DNA from: a virus
Virus record (IMG/VR): IMGVR_UViG_3300032308_001420
Location: 1-64,000 of that record
DNA: 64,000 nucleotides
Strand: one strand, 5' to 3'
Positions 208 through 53,954 of the stretch are shown here, piece by piece. The notes beneath the pieces are model-generated. The model was not told where the DNA came from and made no database searches. It saw nothing but the letters and a program-made list of their open reading frames with translations. Within the stretch, counting starts at the first letter, position 1, and the number at the start of each line of letters is the position of its first letter. The position numbers and the translations under genes are program-made.

Positions 208-684
208 TTATACTATTTCTTTCTTCTTTTTACGTAACGATGGGGCAAATACCTTTTCTTCTGGTGTAAAAGAATCAAGTATGTCAAATGTCTTTGGCTT
301 TGCTTCTTCAGGTACATTTCTAATTACAAGTACTCTGAGTACACCATTTTCCATTACAACTCCAGTTACATCCATATATTCAGATAAAGAAAAGGTTCTA
401 GTAAATGACCTTGCTCCGATTCCCTTGTGAATATATTTAGACGAATCTTCTTTCGAAGAACCCTTAATTGTTAGAATATTTTTTTCTTGCTCAATTACAA
501 TATCTTCTTTTTTGAATCCAGCCAATGCTAGTTCAATCATGTAAGTATCTTCACTAACCTCAACCAAATTATATGGCGGATAGCTTGTTGAATTGTGCAT
601 TACCTTTTCGAGATCTTGAAAATGGCGATCCCAGCCAATAAAAAATGGATCCTTAAAAAGATCCAATGAGAATGTGTTAACCAT
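208..684 (-). CDS. hsp20: Small heat-shock protein, Hsp20/alpha-crystallin family
   Basis: The 158-residue protein has an N-terminal arm with DPFFIGWDRHFQDLEK. The alpha-crystallin domain spans about residues 38-135, with YNLVEVSEDTYMIELALAGF and the family signature NGVLRVLV near residue 113. A PEEAKPKTFDI segment closes the domain, as in Hsp20 proteins of marine phages. The family forms ATP-independent oligomeric holdases that keep unfolded proteins soluble in the cytoplasm; in phages it is usually thought to support virion assembly, which is not shown here. The start is fixed by AAGGAGG seven bases upstream. A promoter-like extended -10 box lies about 60 bases upstream, so the gene can be transcribed on its own. 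The length is typical for the family and no residue is obviously missing. Confidence 0.93.
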   Translation of the reverse strand: MVNTFSLDLFKDPFFIGWDRHFQDLEKVMHNSTSYPPYNLVEVSEDTYMIELALAGFKKEDIVIEQEKNILTIKGSSKEDSSKYIHKGIGARSFTRTFSLSEYMDVTGVVMENGVLRVLVIRNVPEEAKPKTFDILDSFTPEEKVFAPSLRKKKKEIV

Positions 685-1450: not shown

Positions 1451-1679
1451 TTTTGTCTATAGTGCTTTCTACTATCTGCTGTACATAATCAGAAAAATGC
1501 TTTCTTATGTTTCCAGATGGCCTAGATCCAAGGGCTTTCCACAGCCTTTTATACTCAATTACATTGGCAAATGTGGTGGGGCATAGCATTACCTCATTAT
1601 ATTCTTTTAAAACTGTTGGCAGCGGTACATGCTTGCCACAGCACTTACACTCCTTGGCTTTCTCTTGATATATGCTCAT
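1431..1679 (-). CDS. Small zinc-binding-type protein downstream of terminase
   Basis: The 82-residue protein begins MSIYQEKAKECKCCGKHVPL. The C-x-C-C-x-x-H cluster near residues 11-17, with a further cysteine near residue 33, suggests a small metal site. The rest is helical and ends in an acidic tail. Its ATG overlaps the terL stop (ATGA), so it is translationally coupled to the large terminase and probably serves packaging or DNA binding (inference from context only). No named family is recognised. Confidence 0.7.
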   Translation of the reverse strand: MSIYQEKAKECKCCGKHVPLPTVLKEYNEVMLCPTTFANVIEYKRLWKALGSRPSGNIRKHFSDYVQQIVESTIDKNEDGTL

Positions 1680-3484
1680 AGTATTGTCATCCCCTCTATT
1701 GCTTCCGCCAAATCATTCGGCATCCTTGGTGCTCTAATCATATTAAGAACAATTTCGCCATCTTCTCTTTTAAAATCTTGCTCGTAACTCATAGACTCAT
1801 AGGTATGTATATTTATTTCTTCATTATTGGAAAACTTTGTTCTGCTTATTGCATTATATATAGATCCACAAACAGCATCTGCTAAGTCTTTAGATCCTTT
1901 TCTAGGGTGATCAACTCTATCTCTCATTATTTTTAGCTGCAACAGTTCATCAATTAGAAGCGGTATGTGTGGTCCAACAACTCTTTCCTCCGCAACAATC
2001 ATTGCCATATCGTCATAATGTTTTTTTGCAACAGATAACACCTCGGTATTTACCCCGTACTGTTTTAACTGCTGCATCATGTCATGAGAATTCCAGCGGT
2101 CAAACGTGCATACTTTTATGTTAAAGCCCCTGGATCTCAAAGAAAGAATATAGTCTTTAACTTCAGTAAAGTCAACAGACTTATCTTTTGTTGGTGTCCA
2201 GTATCTGACAGCGTCAACCTCAATGATAGGCGCTGGCTGAGAGTAAGTATCTGTAACCTTTACGTTAACCCATTTTTGAACATGGGACATTGCAACTGCA
2301 CAATGGTCATGCTTTTGAGCTAAGTCTACGTGAATAAAATAAACTTTATCTGGATCTGGAGTAAACCACTCTTCAAGTCTTCCAAATGTATCAACTGCCT
2401 GTGCTCCAATACTAAATGCTTTTTCAATTTTCTCTCTTGATTTAAAGAATGCGTCAATGGATTCTGGTGGCATACAAGCGAATCTTGACAAGGCGTCGGT
2501 GGGATTTGTGTAAAAAGCTGTTTTAAAATCATCAATTGTTCTTACTGGGTTAATTTCCCAAGTTGGTCTCTTTAAAGCATAAACCTTTGGAATCTTGTAG
2601 GAAATAATATTATCTTCTTCCCATTGAATTTCAAATTCATTTCCATCTGTTCCGTCGGGAATGTCTTCATACATTTTAAACTTGTGAGTTCTTACAATAG
2701 TTTCTTTCTCTGCAACAACGGCATCGTATCTTTGCTGAATGTAATCGTTTTTATATCTTGGAAACGAAAGAAGAATAACTTTGCCAAAGTCTGGGAAACG
2801 TGAATCCACAGAGGCCCTGTACATATCATAGATTGCACTGCCAGTTTTAGCCTGCTCATGACCAGTTGTATTTTCAATACTAAATCCTGAAATTTCGTCA
2901 AGGATTACAACAATAACATTGTACCCTTCCCAAGCTTCTCTTTCTGAGTGGCCTGAGTGAACCGTAATTGCTTTATCAAACTGTATCTCTGATGCCTTTG
3001 CATTATATCTACCAGCAAACCATGGTGACCTGTCAATTCTTGTTTTAAATCCCTTGAAGAAAACATTGTTAGCCTGCTGAGAGTTAATGGCAATGTTAAT
3101 AATATCAATTGAATCTCCAGGTGGCTTTCCATAATAAGTTGCAGGATCTTTTAAACATAATAGTAAATATACAATATATGCAACAGCAATTGTAGAGCAG
3201 TAATCTTTGCCAGAACCTTTACCTAATTGTGCAACAACTTCATTAGCCGTTTGCTTAGCTATAACCCTTCCCTCATCTTCGCCAAACAATTTGATAAGGG
3301 TTGCCTCTTTATAAATTTGAGAACTTTTTTCAATTAAAGTATATTGAAATTCTGATAATGGTGGTAGACCTAAATATTCTGGGCTGTTAACAAAAGTTTT
3401 AAGGTCTACTGGCTTTTCATCAAACTCTTCGCCATCTAGTATGTCAATTAAATCTGAAAAATCAAACGACATCTGCATCCTCAA
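1676..3484 (-). CDS. terL: Terminase large subunit (packaging ATPase and nuclease)
   Basis: The 602-residue protein has the two expected domains. In the ATPase the Walker A loop is LGKGSGKD (residues 87-94) and the Walker B strand is VVILDE (192-197), followed by the conserved serine/glycine coupling segment. In the C-terminal RNase-H-fold nuclease the acidic residues are D387 (IHVDLAQKHD), D462 (CTFDRW) and D533/D536 (KDLADA). The enzyme pumps DNA into the prohead and cuts the concatemer. The length is normal for the family. It overlaps the small terminase gene by 23 bases and the next gene by four. The terminase genes lie about 43 kb from the portal gene, separated from it by the tail and replication genes, an unusual split of the packaging module. 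Confidence 0.95.
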   Translation of the reverse strand: MRMQMSFDFSDLIDILDGEEFDEKPVDLKTFVNSPEYLGLPPLSEFQYTLIEKSSQIYKEATLIKLFGEDEGRVIAKQTANEVVAQLGKGSGKDYCSTIAVAYIVYLLLCLKDPATYYGKPPGDSIDIINIAINSQQANNVFFKGFKTRIDRSPWFAGRYNAKASEIQFDKAITVHSGHSEREAWEGYNVIVVILDEISGFSIENTTGHEQAKTGSAIYDMYRASVDSRFPDFGKVILLSFPRYKNDYIQQRYDAVVAEKETIVRTHKFKMYEDIPDGTDGNEFEIQWEEDNIISYKIPKVYALKRPTWEINPVRTIDDFKTAFYTNPTDALSRFACMPPESIDAFFKSREKIEKAFSIGAQAVDTFGRLEEWFTPDPDKVYFIHVDLAQKHDHCAVAMSHVQKWVNVKVTDTYSQPAPIIEVDAVRYWTPTKDKSVDFTEVKDYILSLRSRGFNIKVCTFDRWNSHDMMQQLKQYGVNTEVLSVAKKHYDDMAMIVAEERVVGPHIPLLIDELLQLKIMRDRVDHPRKGSKDLADAVCGSIYNAISRTKFSNNEEINIHTYESMSYEQDFKREDGEIVLNMIRAPRMPNDLAEAIEGMTIL

Positions 3485-4004
3485 TCACAACAGATTCAAC
3501 AATTCCTGTGATTTGAGATAATCTCTTAGCTACCTCCATCTTACACTTAGGGCAGGTAGAAGTAACCTCTTTTAATATCTTAACCAGAATGTCTTGCTTT
3601 CTTTCTGTGTCAGCAATTTGTGTTGCAAGCTCGGCGTTGTCTAATAAACCAACCTGCTGCAACATACCAATTCTTTTTGTTTCAATGTCTGAAATTAATT
3701 TTAAAGCAGTGGCCTTAACATTTAGCTGGCCAGATTGATCTGCGTCTTCAACCGTCTTCCAGGCCTCTTTGATAAGCATTGCATAGTGTTGGTCTGCACC
3801 AGAGATTGCCTCCTTAGCACGTTCTCTGGAAGATGTATCATTATGAATTACAGACTTCCATTCATCTATTAGCTCTACAACTTCGCCTCTTTTAAATCCA
3901 GTTATCGTAGCAATTTGTGTTGGAGTGCTACCTTTGAGAAGTTCCTCAACAACTTTATTCATACGATCATAATGATCTGCTAATTCAATTTCGATTGTAA
4001 TCAT
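3462..4004 (-). CDS. Putative terminase small subunit
   Basis: The 180-residue protein has an N-terminal helix-turn-helix (KGSTPTQIATITGFKRGEVV, about residues 24-43). A long helical middle follows, with a pair of cysteines (CPKCK) near residue 152. This layout (DNA-binding HTH, helical oligomerisation core, C-terminal segment) and the overlap with terL fit a small terminase, which recognises the packaging site and feeds DNA to the motor. The Zn-type CxxC pair is not typical of all families. It overlaps the cupin gene upstream by 20 bases. No ATPase motif is present. Confidence 0.7.
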   Translation of the reverse strand: MITIEIELADHYDRMNKVVEELLKGSTPTQIATITGFKRGEVVELIDEWKSVIHNDTSSRERAKEAISGADQHYAMLIKEAWKTVEDADQSGQLNVKATALKLISDIETKRIGMLQQVGLLDNAELATQIADTERKQDILVKILKEVTSTCPKCKMEVAKRLSQITGIVESVVIEDADVV

Positions 4005-4323
4005 CCTCTATTCTTTGAATATCATCTTCGCCAAAATAGGTACCTGTTTGAACTTCTATAAATTCTACAGGGCTATGTTGAGATTCTATTCTATGAAGAT
4101 CTCCAGCTTTTATATCGACCGAATGTCCTGGTGACATAATTCTACTTACTCCGTTTATTGTTACATAAGGATTACCAGAAACTATAAACCAATGCTCATG
4201 TCTTTTTTCGTGTTTTTGATAGGATAGTCTTTGTCCAGATTCAACATAGATATACTTTGTCTTATGGTTATTAGATTCATTAAGAATTTTATAATAACCC
4301 CATGGTCTATTCTCTGTAGTCAT
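3985..4323 (-). CDS. Cupin related to the C-terminal domain of mannose-1-P guanylyltransferase/phosphomannose isomerase
   Basis: The 112-residue single-domain cupin begins with RPWGYYKIL and shows the two cupin motifs: GQRLSYQKHEKRHEHWFIVS, with the metal-ligand histidines, and PVEFIEVQTGTYFGEDDI followed by the RIEDDYNR tail. The FGEDDI-x-R-x-x-D-D-Y ending is characteristic of the ManC/PMI type II C-terminal domain, which interconverts mannose and fructose phosphates. Here it is free of the nucleotidyltransferase half, which is encoded separately at 4683-5345. The gene opens the terminase operon with a leaderless-type promoter six bases before its ATG. It may supply sugar for glycan decoration; that is inference. 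Confidence 0.85.
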   Translation of the reverse strand: MTTENRPWGYYKILNESNNHKTKYIYVESGQRLSYQKHEKRHEHWFIVSGNPYVTINGVSRIMSPGHSVDIKAGDLHRIESQHSPVEFIEVQTGTYFGEDDIQRIEDDYNRN

Positions 4324-4329
4324 TATGTA

Positions 4330-4348
4330 ATTATACTTCTAGTCGACT
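4330..4348 (-). promoter_or_regulatory. Leaderless promoter with AGTCGACT palindrome before the cupin/terminase operon
   Basis: On the minus strand the order is AGTCGACT (4341-4348), five bases, TATAAT (4330-4335), six bases, then the ATG at 4323. A TTGCTA hexamer stands 17 bases before the -10 box. No Shine-Dalgarno sequence is present between the -10 box and the ATG, and transcription would begin at or next to the A of ATG. The palindrome sits where a repressor or activator could act, and it recurs at the 23.96 kb promoter. Confidence 0.55.
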
Positions 4349-4683
4349 GAAATAGCAAGTTTCTTAGCAATTTTAAGTAAGATTAAATAACCAATCATAT
4401 CGTCAATATCATTGTCTCCTGCAAAACCAGAGCCATTTTTGATTCTATTTATCTTATCATCAATACGAATTTTAATCTGCTCTTGATTATCCGCCTGAGA
4501 AAATATTCGAATAGGAGATAAAGCCGAATCTCCATACGAAATGTTTTTCTTAATTAGCATCTCTGCAATATCAAGGCACTCTCTAATAATTTTATGTCCT
4601 GAAGGTGCACTTGTTGCAATTAGTTGTAGATCTGTTACCCATGCTTGATAGCTATCTTTGTTTGGATAATCTGTTCCCACCAT
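4339..4683 (-). CDS. DUF1599/Nmad1-like protein (nucleotide modification associated)
   Basis: The 114-residue helical protein carries KKNISYGDSALSPIRIFSQA around residues 44-63. It then has IRIDDKINRI and finally DDMIGYLILLKIA. The YGDSAL-x-P-x-R-I-F and R-I-D-D-K motifs are those of the DUF1599 family, named Nmad1 because it travels with phage genes for modified DNA bases. Its biochemical activity is not firmly known. It sits between a sugar nucleotidyltransferase and the terminase operon and overlaps the nucleotidyltransferase stop by one base. That context fits DNA or nucleotide modification, but no base-hydroxylating or thymidylate-synthase-like gene is in the window. Confidence 0.75.
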   Translation of the reverse strand: MVGTDYPNKDSYQAWVTDLQLIATSAPSGHKIIRECLDIAEMLIKKNISYGDSALSPIRIFSQADNQEQIKIRIDDKINRIKNGSGFAGDNDIDDMIGYLILLKIAKKLAISVD

Positions 4684-5345
4684 TATTCCATCTCCTTATA
4701 TAGTTGTTTAAGACCCTTTAGCGTTCCTATATCCATATATTTTCCACCTGGTCTTACCGCCCTAACATCTAAATTCATATCAAGCCACTCTTGTATTTGT
4801 TTTCCTGGATGCTCTAATTCTATATCTATGTATCTTATCAAATTTTTGCGGAATAGCATAGTGCCCCACATGTGTGGATATTCACAAGAAGAATTCTTAT
4901 CCATGGAAGAAAGTACTTTATCTCCAGATAATAATACCTGGCCCACCCTTCCTTTTAGATCATCGCCGCAATCCCATGTTCCAAGAACAAGATCACCTGG
5001 GGAAGCCATCATTTCTTTGTATATATTCTTTTGTGTTCCATGAATGTATGTGTCTGGCATTCCAATTAGAACTGTATCGTTATAATCCCCAACCATAAAC
5101 TTTACTGCATCTGACATGGTGGATGGCTCACGAACAATTAATTTAATATTCATATCCATGTTCTGAATAATTGGAACCCACTCAGCTCTTGTTGAAACCC
5201 TTACCTCATCACAAACTTCTAGCATTTGCTCAACGTGCCATTGAAGTAGACATCTTTCGTCAGAAATTGGTAGACAAAATTTAGGTATGCCACCTACTCT
5301 TGATGCTTTTCCTGAAGCTGGCAATATTCCTATCGTTGACATCAC
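4683..5345 (-). CDS. Sugar-phosphate nucleotidyltransferase
   Basis: The 220-residue protein starts with the NTP-transferase signature GILPASGKASRVGGIPKFCL (G-x-G-x-x-S-R-x-G...P-K, residues 6-25). It has a metal-binding Asp in LIGMPDTYI and the product-side segment GGKYMDIGTLKGL near the C-terminus. The family makes NDP-sugars from NTP and sugar-1-phosphate. It is shorter than RmlA or ManC because it lacks the C-terminal beta-helix or cupin part; the cupin at 3985-4323 may be its separated partner. It overlaps the glycosyltransferase gene by four bases, so the two are co-translated. The sugar specificity cannot be read from the sequence. Confidence 0.85.
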   Translation of the reverse strand: MMSTIGILPASGKASRVGGIPKFCLPISDERCLLQWHVEQMLEVCDEVRVSTRAEWVPIIQNMDMNIKLIVREPSTMSDAVKFMVGDYNDTVLIGMPDTYIHGTQKNIYKEMMASPGDLVLGTWDCGDDLKGRVGQVLLSGDKVLSSMDKNSSCEYPHMWGTMLFRKNLIRYIDIELEHPGKQIQEWLDMNLDVRAVRPGGKYMDIGTLKGLKQLYKEME

Positions 5346-6100
5346 TTATCCCAATCATGAGGATTAAATCCTTTAGGATAGGATTCATTTACTCTAGGAT
5401 CTTTTTTCCAAGCAATCCATCCTTCTTCTCTATCGTCTCCCCAATATAGATGAACTACATCTCTATCTAAAAGCCTTTTGGCATCTTCTCCGTGAAAAAT
5501 ATAAACTTTATTATCTTTTAAGAATGGCATTTCAATAAGCTCTGGAGCCCATTCATTAATGTGTTTTTGATATGGCTCTACTCCAAGTTCACGGTATAGG
5601 GCATCTGTAAACATTTGAACGTCAGTATAATAATGAACCATATGATTATGCTGAACAATTCCTTCAGAACATCTTTCAACGCAAAGGTCTATCGCTGCTT
5701 TTAACAGTGGGTGCCCAGATTTAGCAGCAATTGTTTGAGTTGCTAGCCAAGGTGTGTCTCTTTCTATATCTAAAATCATATCGTAATCAGAATTTAACCA
5801 AGTGTCTACTGGTATTTTGCAGTGTGTATCCATGTCTGCATATATTCCGCCATGAATATAAAGAATGGCAAATCTCCACAAGCCAGCCTTCATTACTCCC
5901 AGAGGCAAGTTTACATAAGTCTCGTATGTCTTTAAGTCAAAGTGTTCTTTGAAAAAATCTTCTCTGTCCTGTCCGCTCATGTAGCCATGAACCCATTCTG
6001 GATTTTGATAAGTCCATGTTCCTACGCTTTCTTTAGCGTAATGTGGCAATTCATCAAAAGTTGTTTCATAGGTCTGCCAAATCTTTTTTTCTATACTCAC
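5342..6100 (-). CDS. GT32-type glycosyltransferase
   Basis: The 252-residue protein opens with IEKKIWQTYETTFDELPHYA, like the IPKIIHQ-type start of glycosyltransferase family 32. It has the sugar-nucleotide/metal site RFAILYIHGGIYADMDTHCK (DxD near residues 90-92). Later segments (HMVHYY, IFHGEDAKRLL) fit the C-terminal acceptor region. It should transfer a sugar from an NDP-sugar to an unknown acceptor: DNA, a virion protein or a host glycan. The start is GTG at 6100, preceded by AAAGGAGAT. It begins immediately after the small HTH gene and is coupled to the nucleotidyltransferase, which could make its donor. Confidence 0.88.
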   Translation of the reverse strand: MSIEKKIWQTYETTFDELPHYAKESVGTWTYQNPEWVHGYMSGQDREDFFKEHFDLKTYETYVNLPLGVMKAGLWRFAILYIHGGIYADMDTHCKIPVDTWLNSDYDMILDIERDTPWLATQTIAAKSGHPLLKAAIDLCVERCSEGIVQHNHMVHYYTDVQMFTDALYRELGVEPYQKHINEWAPELIEMPFLKDNKVYIFHGEDAKRLLDRDVVHLYWGDDREEGWIAWKKDPRVNESYPKGFNPHDWDK

Positions 6101-6101
6101 A

Positions 6102-6248
6102 TTATCTCCTTTTAATTAGCTGAAACTGATCTAAATATCTCTGTATGGTCATAGCAGAAACATTGCACTCTTTTGCTATCTCTGTAACTGTTTTCTTTTG
6201 AACAACGTATCTTCTAAATAGCCATTCTTTGCTTTGATATAACTTCAT
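6102..6248 (-). CDS. 48-residue helix-turn-helix protein
   Basis: A short gene starts at the ATG at 6248, overlapping the stop of the RuvC-like gene (ATGA), and ends one base before the GTG start of the glycosyltransferase. The peptide begins MKLYQSKEWLFRRYVVQKKT and contains a clear recognition HTH, VTEIAKECNVSAMTIQRYL (about residues 21-39), followed by a basic tail (LIKRR). This YQ-x-x-WL...T-V-x-E-I-A unit is the same type of HTH found attached to phage homing endonucleases; here it stands alone. It may be a small DNA-binding regulator or the remnant of a lost endonuclease. Confidence 0.72.
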   Translation of the reverse strand: MKLYQSKEWLFRRYVVQKKTVTEIAKECNVSAMTIQRYLDQFQLIKRR

Positions 6249-6811
6249 CTTTGAGTCAATACCTTATTTGCATAGTGTGCAATTCCAAATGAATCAGCAA
6301 CGTCAAAATCTGTTATTGAGAGAGAGTATTTGTTATTAAAATAATCTACTGTCCTTTGCTTACGCATATTTCTTAACTGAGTTTTATACCATGAGTCTGC
6401 ATATCCTGGGTTCTTTACTCTAATCGCCTGTTTTTCATCTTTTGTTGGGTTCTTGTTTCCAATATAGGCTTGCCAAGAACTTGGAGATATAGTAATAACC
6501 TTAGCTCCAGTAGACATCAACTCAGCAATAACAACTCCATAAACATATGACAATTTTATCACAGCATCAGGAGATCTGACAAGTATGGCGCCCTCTACAA
6601 CTATATAGTCTGATTTTAATTCATCAAGCATCAGAGCCATTTTCTTTTTAGCGTCATATATTTTTTCGTATATGTCCATGCCCACTAAATCTATCTTGCC
6701 CCATTTTAATGGTTTATCATTTTCCATTAAACAAAAGGCAATTGAATTTGTAGACGCATCTATTCCAAGGACTCTATGTGCCTTTGTTTTGACTAACTCA
6801 GCTAACTTCAT
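6245..6811 (-). CDS. RuvC-like Holliday junction resolvase
   Basis: The 188-residue protein has the RNase-H-fold nuclease motifs of the RuvC/YqgF group: D18 in VLGIDASTNSIAF, E73 in DYIVVEGAI, and D170/D173 in DFDVADSFGIAHYA near the C-terminus. These acidic residues bind two metal ions and cut branched DNA. The position between a Cas4-like nuclease and a glycosyltransferase, downstream of recA, fits a role in resolving recombination or replication intermediates before packaging. It overlaps the zinc-finger gene by 14 bases. The motif set is complete, so the enzyme is probably active. Confidence 0.88.
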   Translation of the reverse strand: MKLAELVKTKAHRVLGIDASTNSIAFCLMENDKPLKWGKIDLVGMDIYEKIYDAKKKMALMLDELKSDYIVVEGAILVRSPDAVIKLSYVYGVVIAELMSTGAKVITISPSSWQAYIGNKNPTKDEKQAIRVKNPGYADSWYKTQLRNMRKQRTVDYFNNKYSLSITDFDVADSFGIAHYANKVLTQR

Positions 6812-27935: not shown

Positions 27936-28406
27936 TTATACCTCTTCCATTGAAATAGATATATTCCAGTGTGCTTGAATTCCTCGTTTAACTAAATTAA
28001 ATGTGCAATCTGTAAATGATACAGTATGAGACTCATATCCAGAAGATGCTTGACCTACACCATTTTTTGCATAGTTAATTCTAATTTCAAATACACCTTT
28101 TCCTAGTGTGCTTGCATAAAATGTTCTTAGGTCTTCCGCTCCCCAGTATCCGTCTGCTGTTTCAGTTCTATAGGATGGAACTAAATCCCATGAAATACTG
28201 AAAGATTTTTTATCAGCAATAAAAAACTTTCTTAGTGTTCCGTTAGACATTCTCTGTGTTTGTTGAATTCTATTATGTCCTACTGTAAATGGGCCACGAT
28301 TATGGTCTGTAACGGTATTCCATTTTGTTGTTCCATCTCCGCCATTTGCAGAAGCATCTACGCCGTAGATTTGAAGGAGGGCTCCCCTAGGTAAAGTAAT
28401 AGCCAT
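27936..28406 (-). CDS. Distal tail-type protein
   Basis: The 156-residue protein begins MAITLPRGALLQIYGVDASA, contains the beta-rich FFIADKKSFSISWDLVPSYR and ends with FNLVKRGIQAHWNISISMEE. Proteins of this start and length occur between the tape measure and hub genes of actinophages. They probably form the ring that joins the tail tube to the tip. Its start overlaps the tape measure stop by one base. No catalytic motif is present. Confidence 0.7.
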   Translation of the reverse strand: MAITLPRGALLQIYGVDASANGGDGTTKWNTVTDHNRGPFTVGHNRIQQTQRMSNGTLRKFFIADKKSFSISWDLVPSYRTETADGYWGAEDLRTFYASTLGKGVFEIRINYAKNGVGQASSGYESHTVSFTDCTFNLVKRGIQAHWNISISMEEV

Positions 28407-31400
28407 TAGTTTCTTCTTCCCACTCCAGTCATTGCTGCTCTCATTACATTCTTTTGATCAAGCATGTCTACAACCATTGTTGCAATCATTTTTTCATCTT
28501 GTCCTGGTTGTGCATTCACAACAAATCCACCAACATCATAGTGGTGAACTGCTCCACCTTTATTATATCCTGGAATTTGATTTTTGCCAAGGGATACTGT
28601 ATTTGTAGGAATATTGTATCTTGGTCCTACTGCTCCACCCATTGCATAAGCTGGAACACTCATATTAGAATAACTAGATGGATTTACATACCCACCTCTT
28701 GCAAAACCAAGACCCAGCTCTTCCAATATAGTTCCCTTTGGCTTATTAAGTGCAATCCACTTTGCCGTGTCTATTGAAATATCGCCAGTTTGACCAGCAT
28801 TAATTCTTGGCATAATTGATCCAGTCATGCCAGATTTATTCATAAGAGGTCCTAGATTTTCTCCAGCTCCCATAAATCCTTCTTTGCTAAGCAAGCTCCA
28901 TAAACCATAATTTTGTCTCTTTAAATCTTTTGAAAAATCCAAATACTTACCGAAAGGTATTTTTGTTATCTTATTAACAGAGCCATATGACTCTCCCCAT
29001 TGCCCAGGAACATTATATCCGCCAGCATATAAATCAGCTTCTGCCTTTGAGCTTGTTCCATAGAATCCCATTCCATAATAAGGATCACGAGCATAATCTC
29101 CAGATAAATCTGTGACTCCACTAAATGGTCCATCAGAGTTTTGTCCTAGGTCGGCAGACCCATGGAACATTCCCTTCTTAACCATTTTCTTAGCTTTAAA
29201 ATAATTCATATATTGATTAAATAAATTAATTGGCTTATATGCCAGATCTTTGCTCTTTGATAAAATTCCAGCAAGCTTACCTATTAGGCCCCCGCCTGCA
29301 TATTTACGAACTGGTCCGCCCATCGCATAATCTGATGTGTCTCCATAGTTAGTTTTTTTATACCAATCTGCGTCTGCAGAAATTTTAGGAATATCTTCAT
29401 CCCATCCTACTATTTTTTTAGAAGACAATCTACTCTCAATTGCTGTTTTAACATTTTCTATATATTGCTTATACAGCTTTATTGGCATTGAATCTGCTGA
29501 GTAACCAGATGCGCTTAACATTTCTATTAAATCGCTATCTTTTATACCAGACAATGTTGACTGTGCTCTCTGAAGACCCTCTAAATATGCATCTCTTTCA
29601 GATTCTGGTAAGTATGAAAGCCCTTGATAGTATCTATTTTTTAGCCTATCAATAGATTTTTGTTGATCTCCAAATATATCTAATGAATGCTTGGAGTCTC
29701 CAATTCTGCCAAAATCAATAGCGCCAGCTTTTTTACCTATTGGATTTATAATTAAATTTCCGCCATGTGCATCTGAGTATCCAAGTGCATCTAATATTGC
29801 ATTTCTATAAGATCTTTCAGAAGTCATTCCAAGAGCAGCAAATGTTCTTGTGGGCAATGCGCTGACATTTTCTAGTGGCTTAAATGCACTCCAAAACATT
29901 GGATCTTTTGATAGCTTTTCAACTATAATCTTTTCTGTAATAGAACCCTTAGATATCTCATCTACTGATTTGCTAAATATTCCAAGGTTGTGTGGGAAGG
30001 AATAAGGTGTTTTGTAGGGCTTTATTACTGGAGCAACCAGGCCAGCCTTGCCTGCAAAAATAGAGCCAAATATTTCTCGTCTTACTTCATCTGGAGTTAT
30101 TTCGTTTAAAGACTTAAGATATCCAGTATCGCCAGACTTTATATGCTCTACAAGCTGTGTAATATTTAATGATGCTGGAACATTGGATTCTAGTGTTTTA
30201 AATTCTGTATAGTCAAGTAATTCTGGAAACTTTATTACATCATTTATATCTTTTGTTGTTTTACCCATTTTAATTTTAATGGGAGATGAAGCAGCTGCAG
30301 ATGCTGCTTTGCTTATTCCACCTATTTTACTTCCTAAACCCGCTCCCATAAAATTGAGTGGCAGCATTGCTGCAGATAGTGAATCGCCTTTTCTGCCTTG
30401 TCCAGCAATTTTTCTTAGTAGTGCTGCTGTTCCAAATGTTTCTGCACCTGGCATTCCGCTAAGGCTAGATACATATCTTTGGAACCAATTTTGTTTTTTA
30501 GCTGGGCTAGAAGAACCAAATGATGACATTCCCATTGCATGTGGAGCAGAACTTACCATGCCACCATCTGCAAAACCAAATGGCCAAACATTTTTTACTA
30601 GTTTTAATGTTTTTGGTGCGTCACCAAACATCTGTCCATATACTTTTGCTGGTAAAGAGTAAATTTCAGGTAATGATTCTAATAAATCTTTGCCACTTAA
30701 TAACTGTGGAAACTCCATGCTTCCCTGTGCCTTGCTATTTCTTACAGCACCTTCACCTAAGAAATTTGTAAGCTGGGATATTTTTTTATCAATTCCAAAC
30801 ATTGGCAATTCTTCGCCAAGTTTTGCTGATCCTATCATTGCGCTATATAAAGCGGCTATATGTGGATTAGTAGAAAAATAAGTTGAAAGATCTCTTTCTC
30901 CAGTTCTCCAAGCGCTACCTGCGGTGTTTCTTACACCCTTAAATAATTTAATAACGTCATCTGGAAGCAAGTCATAAAATTCTTTTGCATAGTATTCATT
31001 AAATTTTCCTACATCAGAAAAATCAATTTTTGGATATTTAGCCTTTAGTAATGCTTCTCTTTGCGCCTGGACAAGTTCCCAAGCACCAGCACCTGCTTTG
31101 CTTAGACTTCCTTCCTGTATCCATCCTTTGAGCGCTTCCTTTGCTGAGCTTGGGCTAAAGGTAATTCCAGTTTCTGGAATTTTGATTGAAGATGGATCTA
31201 ACTTTGATAAATCTTGTACAGCCTTGGCATCAATGTCTGCCATACCGAAGGATTTCATTTCAGGGGTAAGTTTTGATATAGCTCCTGGTACCTTTGCTGC
31301 GCCCCGTCCAACTCCTCCAAGTGGCAGTAGTGCTGCAGATAAGTAGTCTAATTTATTTCCAGTTCCAGAAAATACATTTGCAACTTCTTTTCCGCCTAAG

Positions 31401-34400
31401 AAATCATAACCAAGACTATGCTTACCAAATTTAAATGGGTCCATAGTTTTTAAAAATTTATGCATAAACTTTGATAATAATGATTGTTTGCTAGCCAATC
31501 CGCCATTTGCAAGTCTGCTTGGTCCGTAGTCAGACAGAGGATTTATAACTCTTCCTCCGCCTGCAAACATCAGTGGACCTAGTCCGTAGGCACCGCTTCC
31601 AATGCCTCCCATAGAGGCTCCAGAGCCTGCCATACGCATAGGATCTCTATCTATACCCATTCCTGGGCTTGTAAATGGTTTACGTGGCTGCTCAGCCATC
31701 TGATGCATGTAGTCTGAATGCTGTGGAACATTTCCACTAAACTTAAGTCCTGGAATTTCTGTTCCGCCCCATATGTCCATACCTGGACTACGTGGCCCAA
31801 TAAACCTAGAAAGTTCTCCCCAGTATTGTCCAAAAGGATTTCCTATAGGCTTTCCAGATCTTGAATAAGGAACACCTGGCTTCTTTTGTCTTGGTACAGT
31901 TAGAGGTCCCTTTATCCAATTTCCAGAATCATCAAAAGAACTTGTAACCTTTCCACCTTGTGCAAATTTCTTTATATTAACCTTTGTGCCTGCAAAAATT
32001 CTTGATCCGCCCATATATTTTGGATCATTTAATTGTGGATTCATTTCCATTAATTGCTTGACGCTAATGCCATACTTTGCAGCAATTGCAGATAATGTAT
32101 CTCCTCTGCCTACTGTGTATCTATCATTTTCATAATCTGACTTAGCATCATCTGCGCTGTAATATTCTGGTGTGCCATATCCATATTTAATAGTATCTAC
32201 TGGCTTATATGAAGGTCTTCCGAATCCTACAATTGGAGCATTCTTCATATTGTATTGTCTTACTTTTGCAAGTACTCCGCCGCCGCTTCTTTGACTTCCA
32301 GAGCCAGATGTATTTCCTTCTATAGTTGAAACTGCATTCTTACTTAAAACTTTTCTTACTAGTCCTACGTGAGAAATTCTATTGACGCCATCTCCTGGGA
32401 AATCCATAAAGGCTAGATCTCCACGAACTGGACTCATTGTTGTCCACTTCCCACTCTTCATAAATGATTGAGCTCCACCAGGAGTCCATATCATACTTGA
32501 TAAATCTACTCCAGATTTCTTTGCCGCCCAATTTATAAATGCACCACACCATGCAATATATCTAGTTTGTAGATCATATGCCTTCTGTGCAAATCTTCCA
32601 AATATTGTGTCGTTGCCTCTTCCTTCTTTATAGCCCAACATAGACTCTGCTGTTTTAATCATTGAGTCTGCTGTGCCCATCTTAGTTACCTTGCCGCCAT
32701 TAGCAAATCTGCCAGCGTTTAGGTTATCAAGGAAATCTGGGCCAAGGTCTCTACTTGCCTTCTCAACTGAAGAAGCTTTAATTACATATTCACCATCTGA
32801 AAGATATGCTGGGATAGAATCAGATGTTGAAGTTCCTGGACCCATTACGTCTCCGCCTGGAGCGTAGTGTTTTACAGCCCCACCTTGTGCAAAAGTAAAG
32901 TTACTTCCTGGGTTGTCGTATCCTGGGTTATACCATCTTCCAACAAGTTTATTATTTTTTAAAACATCGCCATTCTTTTTATATAAATATCCACCCTGAT
33001 TTACATCTTTAATTGGCCCCAACATTTCTAAACTTTGTCCGCCTCCATATGTTGGATGCACAAATGATTGATTTGATCCAGCAGGTCCACCTACTGGAAC
33101 TGGCATAACACGAGCTTGCTCTCTTGTGTACTTAACTCCAGTTGAACGATTTTGAAATCCTCCAGTAGCGGGATCAAAAGATAATTTAGTTCCTGATGTT
33201 GGCGTAGGAGTTCCAGATAATATTTTCTTTAATAATCCCAAAACTTCTGTATCTGATGTTTTAAGTTCTCCCTTTTCGTTGTAAATTGCTTTACCAAATG
33301 CTGACTTAGCTATTTCCTCTATGCCACTTGGATTTGGAACAAATCTGCTTCCTACATAGCTACCGCCGCCACCAGATAAAGATCTTGCTATGTCTTTATA
33401 TCCAGCTTTTTCTAAATCAGATATAAGCAGATTAAGTCTATCTTTCTCTGTTGGACTTAATTCACCATCTGTTGCAGAAGTTGTTAGTGCAAGAAGCTCT
33501 GTGAGTAAGGAGCTAAGATTTTCAACTTTTGCGTTTGCTGCATCAGCTGTCTTTTTTGCTGAATCTACTTTATTCTGAAGTCCATCAATTCTTGCATTAA
33601 GTGCATCAATTAATGATTGTTCTTTTGAAATATCCTCTTCTGCCTTTAAATCAATAGCTCTCTTTGCTAAAGCAACTTGTTGAGACCCAACTAATTGTTG
33701 AATTGCAATTTGTGCTTGTGCTGCACCAGACATATCTCCAGCAGCTAATTTATCTTGATACTCAAGCTGCTTTGCCTTAATTCTAAGATTAATGTCTTCA
33801 TCTGCATTTTCTTCATCTAAAGCTTTCTTTCTTGCGTCCGCTTCTTCTTTTATTTTTTGAATCTTTTTATTATGTAATTCAATTTCTTTACGAAGAGCCT
33901 TAGCTGAAAGTTCTGCGTTTTGAATAATTTGTTCTGCATTTGTTTTTGAAACCTTTGCCATATCCTTTACAATTTGTGAATATGGACCAGATTTTAATGC
34001 TTCTCTTTGTTTTTCAATTATTATAGAAAGAGCTTCAGCGGCTGCTGGCCCCATATTTACAAAATCTAAAGCTATTCCAGATGTAGAAAGTCTAACTTTT
34101 GCCATAATGCTTGCCAAAGTATCTGTTGTGTTTAGAAGCCTGTTCATCTCCGCATTTTGCTTTACTATAGCATTGACACCCTCAATTCCAATTGCTACAT
34201 TTCCACTAGATGTTGCCTTTATCTGCTTTAATATTTCCTGATAAGATTCTGAAGAAGTTATGAGTTTGCCATTTTTATCTTTTGTATTCTCAATTGAATC
34301 TGCTAAATTATTATAAGCATTTAATGCGGTATCCAAGGACTTGCTTAGCTGGTCTGTATTTCCATTTTTAATTACATTATTAAATGTTTCCAGGGTAGAC

Positions 34401-37400
34401 TTTGCAGCAGAAGCTTTATCTGTAATAGTTCCAAAACCTTTATCTCCTAATACTGACAAAGCCTGGGCTGATTTATTTGAAATTGAAATTAATGCATATA
34501 TTAATTCATTTGCATTTTCTACAGACATCCCGCTTGATACAAACATGGCTTTTAGTTGAGTTGCTTTCTGTGCCAGCTCTTGCTCAGATGCTACATTTAG
34601 CATTTTAAGTTCTGTTGGTAACTGTTCCTTAGCTTGCTTTTTTAGTTCATCAAATTCTTTTACAGTTATATCTATTCCTTGACCAGGAGCTTTTGTTGTA
34701 GTATATTTAAATGCTGCCGCCGCTGCATTTCTTAATTCAATTTCCTTTTTGTTTTTTTCTATAGATGAAGTTAAAGTTTTATAGTTAAGATTTAGCTTTT
34801 TTACAGTTTCTTCTTCTAGGCCAAAGGCGGAGTCAATTATTCTTCGTCTCTCATTAATTTTGTCATTAATGGTTTTTATTGCAACTCCTACACCAAGCAA
34901 GACAGCTATTAATTTGACTGGCCCAGGCATTTTTGTAAAAAGTTGAAATGCTTTTGTTAATAAAGTTGTTTGAGTTCTTGCTGTTCCTGCAGCCCTAGAC
35001 ATAAGGAACATGTCTGTTGCCATTTGACCAACCATGTATCCGCCCATTTGCCCAATACCGCCAAACATTCTGCCGCCAACTTGACTTAATCCAAATCCAG
35101 CAGCCTGTCCTAGAAGCATTGACTTCATGTATCCAGATGCTCCAATTCTTGGCTGAACAATTCTTTGTTCGTTTTCTTCCGCAAAGTATTGAACCCCAGG
35201 AACTACCCCGCCCTTTGAGAATCCAGGAATAATTCCACCAGACATTTTTGGAACAAATATTTCTGGACCATTCTCTCCAACTAAATACGGTCTACCACCA
35301 GTAACTGGTCCTCCGCCTGCACGAGCACCGTCAACAACTGTCTCTAATTGTATTTTGCCATTTCCTGCATCAACAATTCTAAACTTACCGCCAAAGATTG
35401 CCTCTTGTTCTGACCTTGAATTATGTCCAGCTACCTTTTGTCCAAATGGTGCTGAGAATTTTGCATCTGGGAAAATCTCTGATGATGGAACAACATTTCT
35501 ATTTCTTACAATTGCTTCTAATAGAATAGCTTTTTGGTCTCCTGGAGCAGAATGGCCAGGAGCAAATAAACTTGCTATGTCCCTATTTTGACTCCACGAT
35601 GAGCGGCGCATTATAAATTCTCTTCCAATTAAAGGAGTATAGTCTCCAGTTAATTTTGCCTGAGATATTAAATCTAATATATCTGCTGGCAGCGGATTTG
35701 ATTTATTATTCTTTAAAAATATTCCTCTGTATAGTCTTCCAGTATATTTTCTTGATAAAGTTTTTACTGCTTCTGTAGCGCCTGGAGTTTGCAAAATGCC
35801 ATAGTTTCCAGCCATGTATTGACGCAATATATATTTGCCACGATCCTCTAAATTACCAATTGGGAACTGAGGAAGTACTGCTTGTCTTGCAAATCTATCG
35901 TCACGATATAAAATTTCACGAGTCCACTCAGGCTCATTTTGCATATTTTTTGGAACCATTGTTGTTCCAATTTGTAATGGCCCGTGAAGTGGATCTTGGT
36001 TTCCTAGTGTATATTGATATCCTGGTTGTCTAAACTGCTGTTGTGGTTTCCATTTTCCAGTTAATTTATCAAGCTTTGACTTAGATAAAGACTTTACTAT
36101 TCTTCCAACCATGTTGGTTCCAAAGTTTTGTATGATTCCGCCCATATTTTTTCTTTGTATTCTAGCTACTTTATTTTCTTTTAGGGCAACATAATCTCGT
36201 TCGTATAATGCGGTTGGATTGTATTGAGTTAAAACTCTTTCTATTTCTGGAATTACATCTTTTGTAAAAGTAAACTCTGCGCCAAGCTCTGGTCTATCTC
36301 CTATAGTTGGAAGTTGATCTACTGAGACACCACGTCTTTGTGCTTCGTTTTCAAATCTTGTTCTTATTGCTGAATCTATTGCTTCTTCAGCTTCATCCCA
36401 TTGAGAAAGAGGAATTTTTGCAGCTCTTAATTGATTTCTATATTTGTTTACTCCTGCTACCTTAACAAGGTCTCTTCTTAAAAAGTCGGATGGTCTAAGG
36501 TTATTTTGGTTTGCTGATAAATTAGTTGCCGCTGTATAATCTACAATATAGTTGCTTACTAATACTTTTCCATCTCCTAGTTTTTTACTTACTGTAAGAT
36601 GCGTACCATGTCTTGGCTCTGCATATGGAAGTGCATCTAGTCCATTTTCTACAAACCTTGAATTTAATTCGCTAACATTTTTTGACTGTAATGTTCTTGA
36701 TGTTTGAGAATGAAGTGCTGGATCTTTTTTAGACCTAGTTAATTTATCTGTAAAGTTTTTAGCTACATCTAAATATTTTTGTTTTAATACAGGATCTGGA
36801 ATATCACCAATTTGAGAAATAAATCCTCTAGCATCTGCCCCTCTTGCTTTTATGCCATGAACAGTTTCTACTACATCTCTATTTCTAGTTGTAGAAAGAC
36901 CTTTAACAATTCTATTAGGCATCATTCTGCCAAAGAATTGCATACCCTCTATCATTCCGCCTTTATTTTTATTTTGAATTGGAACTATTACCGCTTTACC
37001 CTTATTGTATAGATGAAGTCCTTCTGGGTCACGAGCTGTTTGTTCTTTAGTTACAACAAATTCTCCTGGAGTAAGCATTGCTGGAACGGTATCTGTATTT
37101 CCTTGACCAGGTACAAATCTACCTTGTTCGGTAGTAAATACCTGTCCGCCCATGTTTAATCTTTTTGGTCTAGTTGTTTCTGTTGAATATGGTGCGCCAA
37201 ATGTTTTAACTCTAAGCGCTTCAGCAATTCTTGTAATAAGGTTTCTGTTTCTTGGTCTTGTAAGTTCTTTCATATTTGATTTTCCAGTTACTGGGTCAAA
37301 TGCTGGTTGATCTACAATTGGCAACTGTGTTAAATTAATTGTTCTTCCTTGTGCAGTAGCAACTCCTGTTGCTGCCTGCCCCATCATTGCTTCAATCTGT

Positions 37401-52249: not shown

Positions 52250-53374
52250 CTATGCAAACTTCGTTTGTGATCCAAATACCGTGTAAGTAGCTGATGATGT
52301 TTTTAAAATTGTGTAAACGTAAGTGTCTACACTAGAAGCATTTCCTGCACTTGGTGCAGCTCCATTTAACCATTTAATACTGCTTTGTGTTGTTCCGTCA
52401 ATTTGAAAAGTAGACGGATACGAAGCGGTTGATGCTCCAGTTGTATTTAAAAATGCTATTGTCATAGACTGTCCATTAGACATCAAAGAATTCAAAGTAA
52501 CTCCAGAACTACCTCTAACATTTAAAGTAAATGCACTTGTTGACCCAGTTGTATAATACCAAACACTAGAAGTTGCTACATCCATATTAATTGTTGAAGA
52601 TGTTGCTGATGCAACAATATTTGCTGTTTCAAGTAATCCAGTAACTGCAGAATTTGTTTGTATTACTCCCTGAGTACCAGTAGTTCCTTGAGCTCCCGTT
52701 GCGCCTTGTGAGCCAGTTGTACCCTGTGAGCCTGTTGCACCTTGTGAACCAGTAGTACCTTGTGAACCAGTTGTACCAGTAGTACCTTGTGAACCAGTAG
52801 TACCAGTAGTACCTTGTGAACCAGTAGTACCAGTAGCACCTTGTGAACCAGTTATTCCTTGGGCGCCAGTTGTTCCCTGTGTTCCAGTTGCGCCTTGTGC
52901 ACCTTGAATAGGGCCAACATTTGTCCAAGCAGATCCAGTCCATACATACAAATCGCCAGAAATTATATAAGCATCTCCAACTGTTCCTGTTGGATGTGCC
53001 GACTGTAGAGCTCCTAGTGTTGCGTATGTTCCTAAAATATCAACGCCAGTTCCAGCAACTCCTTGTGCGCCAGTTGTTCCTTGAGTTCCTGTTGCGCCTT
53101 GTGTTCCAGTAGCTCCTTGTGTGCCAGTAGTGCCTTGTGTGCCCTGTGCGCCTTGTGTACCAGATGTGCCTTGTGTACCATTGGCTCCTTGTGTTCCTGT
53201 TGCACCCTGTGCTCCAGTGGTTCCCTGTGCTCCTTGGGAACCAGTAGTTCCTTGCGCTCCAGGATTTGCAGTTAAATAAGTATCAATGTTTTGTGCAAGT
53301 AGTTGGATATCCGCAGGAATATCTGGCGGATCTGAATAAGCAGGAAAACTAAAACCCTTTGATGTTGAGCCCAT
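52250..53374 (-). CDS. Collagen-like tail fibre protein
   Basis: I use the ATG at 53374 (374 residues, [11 protein letters not shown]); an upstream TTG would place the promoter inside the gene. Two collagen tracts of G-x-x triplets, mostly GAQ, GTT and GTQ, lie around residues 33-105 and 155-240. A small beta domain separates them ([33 protein letters not shown]). The C-terminal head ([20 protein letters not shown]) probably starts trimerisation or binds the receptor. The collagen part forms a stiff triple helix. The gene has a leaderless-type promoter. Confidence 0.88.
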
Positions 53375-53380
53375 TTTAAA

Positions 53381-53389
53381 ATTATACCA
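53381..53389 (-). promoter_or_regulatory. Leaderless promoter for the collagen-like fibre gene
   Basis: The minus strand reads TGGTATAAT, then TTTAAA and the ATG at 53374. The six-base spacing leaves no room for a ribosome site, as at 4323 and 23954. The box lies in the last codons of the upstream TPR gene. Confidence 0.6.
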
Positions 53390-53954
53390 CAATTCCCATA
53401 AAATCTAAGTTTCTTTTAACGGATGAAGAATACATATTAGGCATGGGTATCTTATAAAGCTTAATAAATAATTCTTGGCTTTCATCTTGTCGTCCTACCC
53501 ACCAGGCAGCTACGGCTTTTTGAAATGTTAAGCAAAAATCTCCTGGGTAATCAACACCTATTGGAAGAGGTGCATGATTTTCTGATAATCTATAAAGACC
53601 AACTTCTGCATAAGTATATGCTTGCTGCCAATTTTTATTTCTTTCGCTATAACGAGAAAGCAAGAACCATGCTTCAGGTCTTCCTGGTTGATATGCAGCA
53701 GCCTTTAAAAAAAGATTTTCTACTGTAGCCTGTCTATTTTTTTGATTTTCAAAACAATTTGCTGACTTTAATAATGATGCATACACATACTCTGGGTGTG
53801 AATAGTAACCATATTCTGCCGCCCTTAAATAAAATGAAATAGCGGCAGCAGTTTGTCCTACAAGTTCATACTCTGTAGCAATGCTAAAACAAAGTTTTGG
53901 GTCAAAAGGATCTTTGCTTAGTTTTTCAACTAATTCATTTATTACCTCAAACAT
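53382..53954 (-). CDS. TPR-repeat protein
   Basis: The 190-residue protein is helical with tetratricopeptide-like units: [61 protein letters not shown] shorter fourth unit follows ([20 protein letters not shown]). Such TPR segments accompany glycosyltransferases and glycan-binding enzymes in bacteria and aquatic phages. It overlaps the GH130-like gene by eight bases, so the two proteins probably work together. The tail-fibre region is an odd place for it. Its last codons carry the promoter of the next fibre gene. Confidence 0.72.

What the first reader, a model, noticed from the sequence alone, without database searches (positions are those of the whole stretch)
3985..6100. Sugar nucleotide module beside the terminase genes
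A GT32 glycosyltransferase, a nucleotidyltransferase, a DUF1599/Nmad1-like protein and an isolated PMI/ManC-type cupin lie in a row. The nucleotidyltransferase lacks a C-terminal domain and the cupin is just such a domain, so they may be a split ManC-like enzyme making GDP-mannose or a similar donor. Nmad1 points to DNA modification, so glycosylation of DNA bases or of virion proteins is possible. Base hydroxylase or thymidylate-synthase-like genes would be expected elsewhere if DNA is the target.
Basis: partly seen in the sequence, partly recalled or inferred. Interest (0 to 1): 0.62.

Follow-up and report, generated by a model that had tools for sequence, protein, structure and literature searches.

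The report
Swappable phage sugar-attachment gene cassette

Summary
The four genes are real: a GT32 glycosyltransferase (5342-6100), a single-domain sugar-1-phosphate nucleotidyltransferase (4683-5345), a DUF1599-like protein (4339-4683) and a PMI-type cupin (3985-4323), in one minus-strand run between ruvC and the terminase genes, under purifying selection. The phage is related to Stanwilliamsviridae (Streptomyces phages), which carry other sugar genes in the same ruvC-terS slot.

The split-ManC idea is not supported: most relatives carry the nucleotidyltransferase without the cupin, others the cupin without the nucleotidyltransferase. The DNA-modification idea is weak: DUF1599-like stays with terS when the sugar genes are replaced, is absent beside the same nucleotidyltransferase in other phages, and no thymidylate-synthase/hydroxymethylase or TET/JBP gene was found (records incomplete).

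The robust new point: this nucleotidyltransferase forms a nearly phage-only family (211-319 viral loci, no Pfam match). It directly follows a glycosyltransferase in nearly every locus, though that glycosyltransferase is GT32 or one of several GT2-like types, and it has moved between phage lineages (AU p=0.003). Best reading: an exchangeable cassette that glycosylates the virion, plausibly tail fibres. Sugar and acceptor are unproven.

The parts
5342..6100 (-). GT32-type glycosyltransferase (252 aa), DXD motif GGIYADMDT
   Evidence: PF04488 1.2e-13; best solved relative is an Och1-type alpha-1,6-mannosyltransferase, 1.2e-8; GGxYADxD kept in 26 of 26 relatives, median dN/dS 0.094
4683..5345 (-). 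single-domain sugar-1-phosphate nucleotidyltransferase; GTG start at 5345, likely true ATG start at 5342 overlapping the GT32 stop (TGATG)
   Evidence: Foldseek: UDP-glucose pyrophosphorylase 1.6e-5, also HddC, KdsB, MurU, RmlA; VIA Z 10.7 over 179 residues; model pLDDT only 55.5; motifs LPASG(K/R)AxRxGGIPKF, GMPDT, YMDIGT kept in 39 of 39 phage relatives
4339..4683 (-). DUF1599-like (Nmad1-like) small protein, 114 aa, predicted helical; belongs with terS more than with the sugar genes
   Evidence: hhalign to DUF1599 proteins 94%, 8.5e-8; phrog_1485 5.1e-11; no Pfam hit
3985..4323 (-). stand-alone PMI/ManC C-terminal type cupin, 112 aa; optional gene
   Evidence: PF01050 3.5e-28; TIGR01479 positions 360-467, 1.8e-28; present in 15 of 54 comparable loci
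6245..6811 (-). RuvC-like resolvase, upstream boundary of the variable sugar-gene island
   Evidence: phrog_159 3.7e-22; conserved boundary in the lineage and in Streptomyces phage TunaTartare
3462..4004 (-). terminase small subunit-like protein, downstream boundary
   Evidence: phrog_9507 1e-54; 47% match at the annotated terminase small subunit of TunaTartare
1676..3484 (-). terminase large subunit
   Evidence: 62-63% identical to Stanwilliamsviridae TerL
52250..53392 (-). collagen-like Gly-X-Thr/Gln tail-fibre protein, candidate acceptor (inference)
   Evidence: 51 Gly-X-Y triplets, X=Thr 24, Y=Thr 21; collagen PF01391; tail-fibre PHROGs

Best explanation
The island between ruvC and the DUF1599-like/terS genes is an exchangeable glycosylation cassette. 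The nucleotidyltransferase couples a nucleotide to a sugar 1-phosphate, giving an NDP-sugar; the glycosyltransferase encoded directly before it transfers that sugar. In relatives these are joined or replaced by other glycosyltransferases (GT2-like, GT25, a second GT32), FkbM-type methyltransferases, a HIGH-type cytidylyltransferase or 2OG-Fe(II) oxygenases. The acceptor is most likely a virion protein, plausibly a tail fibre, so that phages vary their surface sugar. The cupin is an optional accessory, perhaps a stand-alone isomerase feeding the sugar-phosphate pool. Shown here: gene content, fold class, intact motifs, purifying selection, modular exchange, movement between phage lineages. Inferred: enzymatic activity, identity of the sugar, virion as acceptor.
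For: In 64 distinct nucleotidyltransferase loci the gene directly upstream is a glycosyltransferase in 56 (26 GT32, 30 of three GT2-like types); 5 are at contig edges and 3 unassigned, one of them the bacterial locus. Of the three GT2-like types, two pass the Pfam cut-off and the third falls just short, 22.5 against 23.3 bits. The downstream gene varies: DUF1599-like 35, a GT4-like gene 20, a 2OG oxygenase-like gene 4. Identities are discordant along one stretch: L003 has TerL 97% but GT32 77%; L074 has GT32 96% but TerL 82% and nucleotidyltransferase 79%. A single clade for this phage lineage's nucleotidyltransferases is rejected, AU p=0.003. TunaTartare, an isolate, has two annotated glycosyltransferases and a HIGH-type nucleotidyltransferase in the same slot; two of these are homologous to genes in the slot of L085 (51% and 26%). 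A second glycosyltransferase locus next to ribonucleotide reductase is shared with TunaTartare (47%) and in this record lies near a 146-triplet collagen-like fibre gene. Glycosylation of capsid and tail tube by phage glycosyltransferases is established in mycobacteriophages (PMC12363180, citing Freeman et al. 2023).
Against: No virion chemistry is available. The nucleotidyltransferase model is of low confidence (pLDDT 55.5, TM 0.47) and gives no donor specificity. The cassette is not adjacent to the fibre genes. Collagen-like genes were not found in 4 of 12 records checked (incomplete records). No sugar kinase or mutase was recognised in the cassette, so a host sugar 1-phosphate would have to be used.
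Confidence: 0.55

Rival explanations
1. Split ManC: nucleotidyltransferase and cupin are the two halves of a mannose-1-phosphate guanylyltransferase/mannose-6-phosphate isomerase making GDP-mannose for the GT32 enzyme.
For: The cupin matches the ManC C-terminal domain end to end; the GT32 protein's best solved relative is an Och1 mannosyltransferase; in cyanophage S-SCSM1 a homologous stand-alone cupin lies beside GDP-mannose dehydratase and GDP-fucose synthase genes.
Against: The two genes dissociate in both directions; the cupin is found with several different glycosyltransferase sets; the nucleotidyltransferase has no ManC-type sequence match and its structural matches are not specific to GDP-mannose enzymes.
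Confidence: 0.08
2. DNA hypermodification: the sugar is transferred to a phage base, with the DUF1599-like protein as part of the pathway.
For: Phage nucleotidyltransferases can serve DNA modification, as proposed for the UDP-xylose pyrophosphorylase of Shewanella phage Thanatos (PMC12838424); a DUF1599-like gene lies in the same run.
Against: No PF00303 in 10 records; TET/JBP hits only below cut-off, and those examined are better matched by PF13640; DUF1599-like stays when the sugar genes are replaced and is absent beside the same nucleotidyltransferase in other phages. The records are incomplete.
Confidence: 0.12
3. Host-surface modification: the phage alters a host cell-surface polysaccharide, for example to prevent superinfection, as proposed for cyanophage sugar clusters.
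For: Similar clusters with cupin isomerases, HIGH nucleotidyltransferases and glycosyltransferases in cyanophages were read this way (PMC7824862).
Against: No polysaccharide polymerase, flippase or membrane-anchored glycosyltransferase was recognised in the cassette; the two glycosyltransferase loci lie among packaging and structural genes.
Confidence: 0.2

Closest known systems
Mycobacteriophage virion glycosylation (Che8, Corndog, Myrna; Freeman et al. 2023, reached through PMC12363180)
   Same: Phage-encoded glycosyltransferases modifying the phage's own particle (function inferred here)
   Different: Here a dedicated nucleotidyltransferase is encoded, the glycosyltransferase is GT32 and exchangeable, and glycosylation has not been measured
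Streptomyces phage TunaTartare (Stanwilliamsviridae), ruvC-terS region
   Same: Related TerL (62%), RuvC and TerS; sugar genes in the same slot; second glycosyltransferase pair beside ribonucleotide reductase
   Different: The slot holds two annotated glycosyltransferases (one GT25-like) and a HIGH-type nucleotidyltransferase instead of GT32 and this nucleotidyltransferase; no recognised DUF1599-like or cupin gene
Cyanophage sugar clusters (S-SCSM1, S-SCSM2R; PMC7824862)
   Same: Stand-alone PMI-type cupin near glycosyltransferases and 2OG-Fe(II) oxygenases
   Different: Those also encode GDP-sugar or dTDP-sugar dehydratases/epimerases; none were seen in this cassette
ManC/AlgA (GMP-PMI)
   Same: The cupin equals its C-terminal domain
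   Different: The nucleotidyltransferase shows no ManC-type sequence match, and the two genes do not travel together

Membership tests
Sugar-1-phosphate nucleotidyltransferase superfamily | Nucleotidyltransferase fold over the whole chain | tested here: met
   Foldseek 1.6e-5; VIA Z 10.7, rmsd 3.9, 179 residues; model of low confidence
Sugar-1-phosphate nucleotidyltransferase superfamily | Conserved Gly/Arg/Lys signature and two Asp | tested here: met
   Signature, GMPDT and YMDIGT invariant in 39 of 39 phage members; assignment of the residues to catalysis is by analogy
Sugar-1-phosphate nucleotidyltransferase superfamily | Enzymatic activity and donor | not testable with these tools
   needs an assay
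ManC / GMP-PMI | ManC-type nucleotidyltransferase domain | tested here: inconclusive
   No Pfam or NCBIfam match to it; the fold cannot tell
ManC / GMP-PMI | Both halves present together | tested here: not met
   Cupin in 15 of 54 loci; cupin without nucleotidyltransferase in at least five loci
PMI-type cupin (PF01050) | Match above the curated cut-off | tested here: met
   98.5 bits against 23.6
GT32 (PF04488) | Match above cut-off with DXD motif | tested here: met
   52 bits against 23; motif in 26 of 26
DUF1599 / Nmad1 (PF07659) | Match to the Pfam model | tested here: not met
   No match in 22 members or in the record
DUF1599 / Nmad1 (PF07659) | Shared profile with family members | tested here: met
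   hhalign 94%, 8.5e-8, against two members; therefore called DUF1599-like only
Phage DNA hypermodification system | Base-activating enzyme (hydroxymethylase or TET/JBP) in the genome | tested here: inconclusive
   None found, but the records are incomplete
Actinobacteriophage virion glycosylation | Glycan on virion proteins | not testable with these tools
   needs mass spectrometry

The most novel reading that the evidence does not exclude
These phages build modified collagen-like tail fibres: 2OG-Fe(II) oxygenases hydroxylate them (in some relatives) and cassette glycosyltransferases, fed by a phage-specific nucleotidyltransferase, add variable sugars. It would be a viral counterpart of collagen hydroxylation and glycosylation, with the sugar swapped by recombination.
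Probability: 0.18. Interest if true: 0.75.

Novelty: new variant of a known kind. Interest (0 to 1): 0.45.

Why it matters
It identifies a widespread, uncatalogued phage family of sugar-activating enzymes and a recombination slot in which Stanwilliamsviridae-like phages exchange glycosylation genes. If the virion is the target, phages change their surface sugar by cassette swapping, and cultured Streptomyces relatives with sugar genes in the same slot make this testable now.

Tried and rejected
Split ManC: rejected as the main reading because the two genes dissociate. DNA modification: PF00303 and TET/JBP searches negative or below cut-off; the sub-threshold TET/JBP hits examined further (L171, L172) are better matched by PF13640. 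Fold search of the DUF1599-like model gave nothing (best E 3.5; a few MazG-like entries at noise level). tblastn of GT32 and of the nucleotidyltransferase in isolated phages found nothing. Bacterial origin: one homologue in the genome collection of 84,980 species, an Opitutaceae bin (53-54%, with a GT2 gene nearby on the other strand), and no further one in 288 genomes of its phylum. Querying viral contigs with that homologue found nothing. Two papers sought by DOI, on mycobacteriophage virion glycosylation and on DNA base modification systems, were not held.

Full report
What is there. The window is part of a 75,684-base virus record. Its large terminase is up to 62-63% identical to those of Streptomyces phages of the Stanwilliamsviridae (family name from the TunaTartare record). 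On the minus strand the order is ruvC, GT32 glycosyltransferase, nucleotidyltransferase, DUF1599-like, cupin, terS, terL. GT32 and nucleotidyltransferase overlap as TGATG, and the nucleotidyltransferase stop overlaps the DUF1599-like start, so the run is probably translationally coupled (sequence).

Identity of the parts. The GT32 and cupin assignments are plain Pfam matches. The nucleotidyltransferase has no Pfam match; the assignment rests on a low-confidence AlphaFold model (pLDDT 55.5) whose listed Foldseek matches are all sugar-1-phosphate or related nucleotidyltransferases, with Z 10.7 over 179 residues to UDP-glucose pyrophosphorylase, and on invariant signature motifs. Donor specificity cannot be read from this. 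The small protein is DUF1599-like by profile comparison but not by Pfam. Median dN/dS is 0.07, 0.088, 0.094 and 0.045 for nucleotidyltransferase, DUF1599-like, GT32 and cupin (synonymous divergence is high for the first three, so these are approximate, and only three cupin comparisons were available).

The slot is variable. Among relatives, the stretch between ruvC and the DUF1599-like gene holds GT32 alone; an FkbM-type methyltransferase plus a divergent GT32; an FkbM-like gene plus GT2; FkbM, HIGH-type cytidylyltransferase and GT25; GT25, methyltransferase and another GT32; or an aspartyl/asparaginyl-hydroxylase-like gene plus GT32, the last three or four combined with or without the nucleotidyltransferase. 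In TunaTartare the same slot holds two annotated glycosyltransferases and a HIGH-type nucleotidyltransferase, two of the three homologous to genes in L085. Identities along single contigs are discordant.

The cupin is optional. It is present in 15 of 54 loci that have nucleotidyltransferase, DUF1599-like and terS, as a precise insertion: the gap between DUF1599-like and terS is usually 10-20 bases without it and 338 with it (one cupin-less locus, L044, has an FkbM-like gene there instead). Some of these loci are overlapping retrievals of one contig, so the counts are of loci, not of independent phages. At least five loci have the cupin but no nucleotidyltransferase. A stand-alone role, such as sugar-phosphate isomerase, fits better than half of a ManC.

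The nucleotidyltransferase travels. A scan of viral contigs found 211 relatives and a profile-guided scan 319. In 64 distinct loci its upstream neighbour is a glycosyltransferase in all 56 that could be assigned, of GT32 or one of three GT2-like types, while the downstream gene differs by phage group. A tree places members of this phage lineage in more than one place among those of other phages, and a single clade for the lineage is rejected (AU p 0.003). The simplest reading is one conserved NDP-sugar donor used by different transferases; this is inference.

What is modified. No base-activating gene was found, the DUF1599-like gene follows terS and not the sugar genes, and the genome's second glycosyltransferase locus sits near collagen-like, threonine-rich fibre genes. 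In a 115-kb relative six PF13640 2OG-Fe(II) oxygenase genes stand beside a collagen-like S74 fibre gene, and a phage of another lineage with the same nucleotidyltransferase has 13 PF13640 matches. This circumstantial pattern favours protein as acceptor. The window's own record has no PF13640 match, so hydroxylation is not part of the claim for this phage.

Limits. Host and habitat were not established; the contigs are metagenomic. Several relatives are fragments, so absences are weak. Function, donor and acceptor are inferences.

Noticed in passing
L171 3165-9892 (115-kb relative, contig IMGVR_UViG_3300044591_000896, 100500-110500): Six PF13640 2OG-Fe(II) oxygenase genes, most in tandem, next to a collagen-like S74 tail-fibre gene; the contig of L054 (114 kb) has 13 PF13640 matches, ten within about 9 kb, near a collagen-like gene.
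   Followed up: partly
record 68495-71356 (L082 4996-7857, beyond the window): 953-aa fibre protein with 146 Gly-X-Y triplets, about 40% Thr at both X and Y, a possible O-glycosylation substrate.
   Followed up: partly
record 74567-75595 (L082 11068-12096): GT4-type glycosyltransferase beside ribonucleotide reductase, 47% and 45% identical to TunaTartare gp17 and gp18 at the same place.
   Followed up: partly
L098 5998-6666: Only cellular homologue found of the nucleotidyltransferase, 53-54% identical, in an Opitutaceae bin.
   Followed up: partly
window 28406-39865: 3819-aa tape-measure-like protein with endolysin-like stretches around residues 2400-2640.
   Followed up: no
window 208-684: HSP20 small heat-shock protein near the terminase genes (PF00011 6.6e-17).
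   Followed up: no
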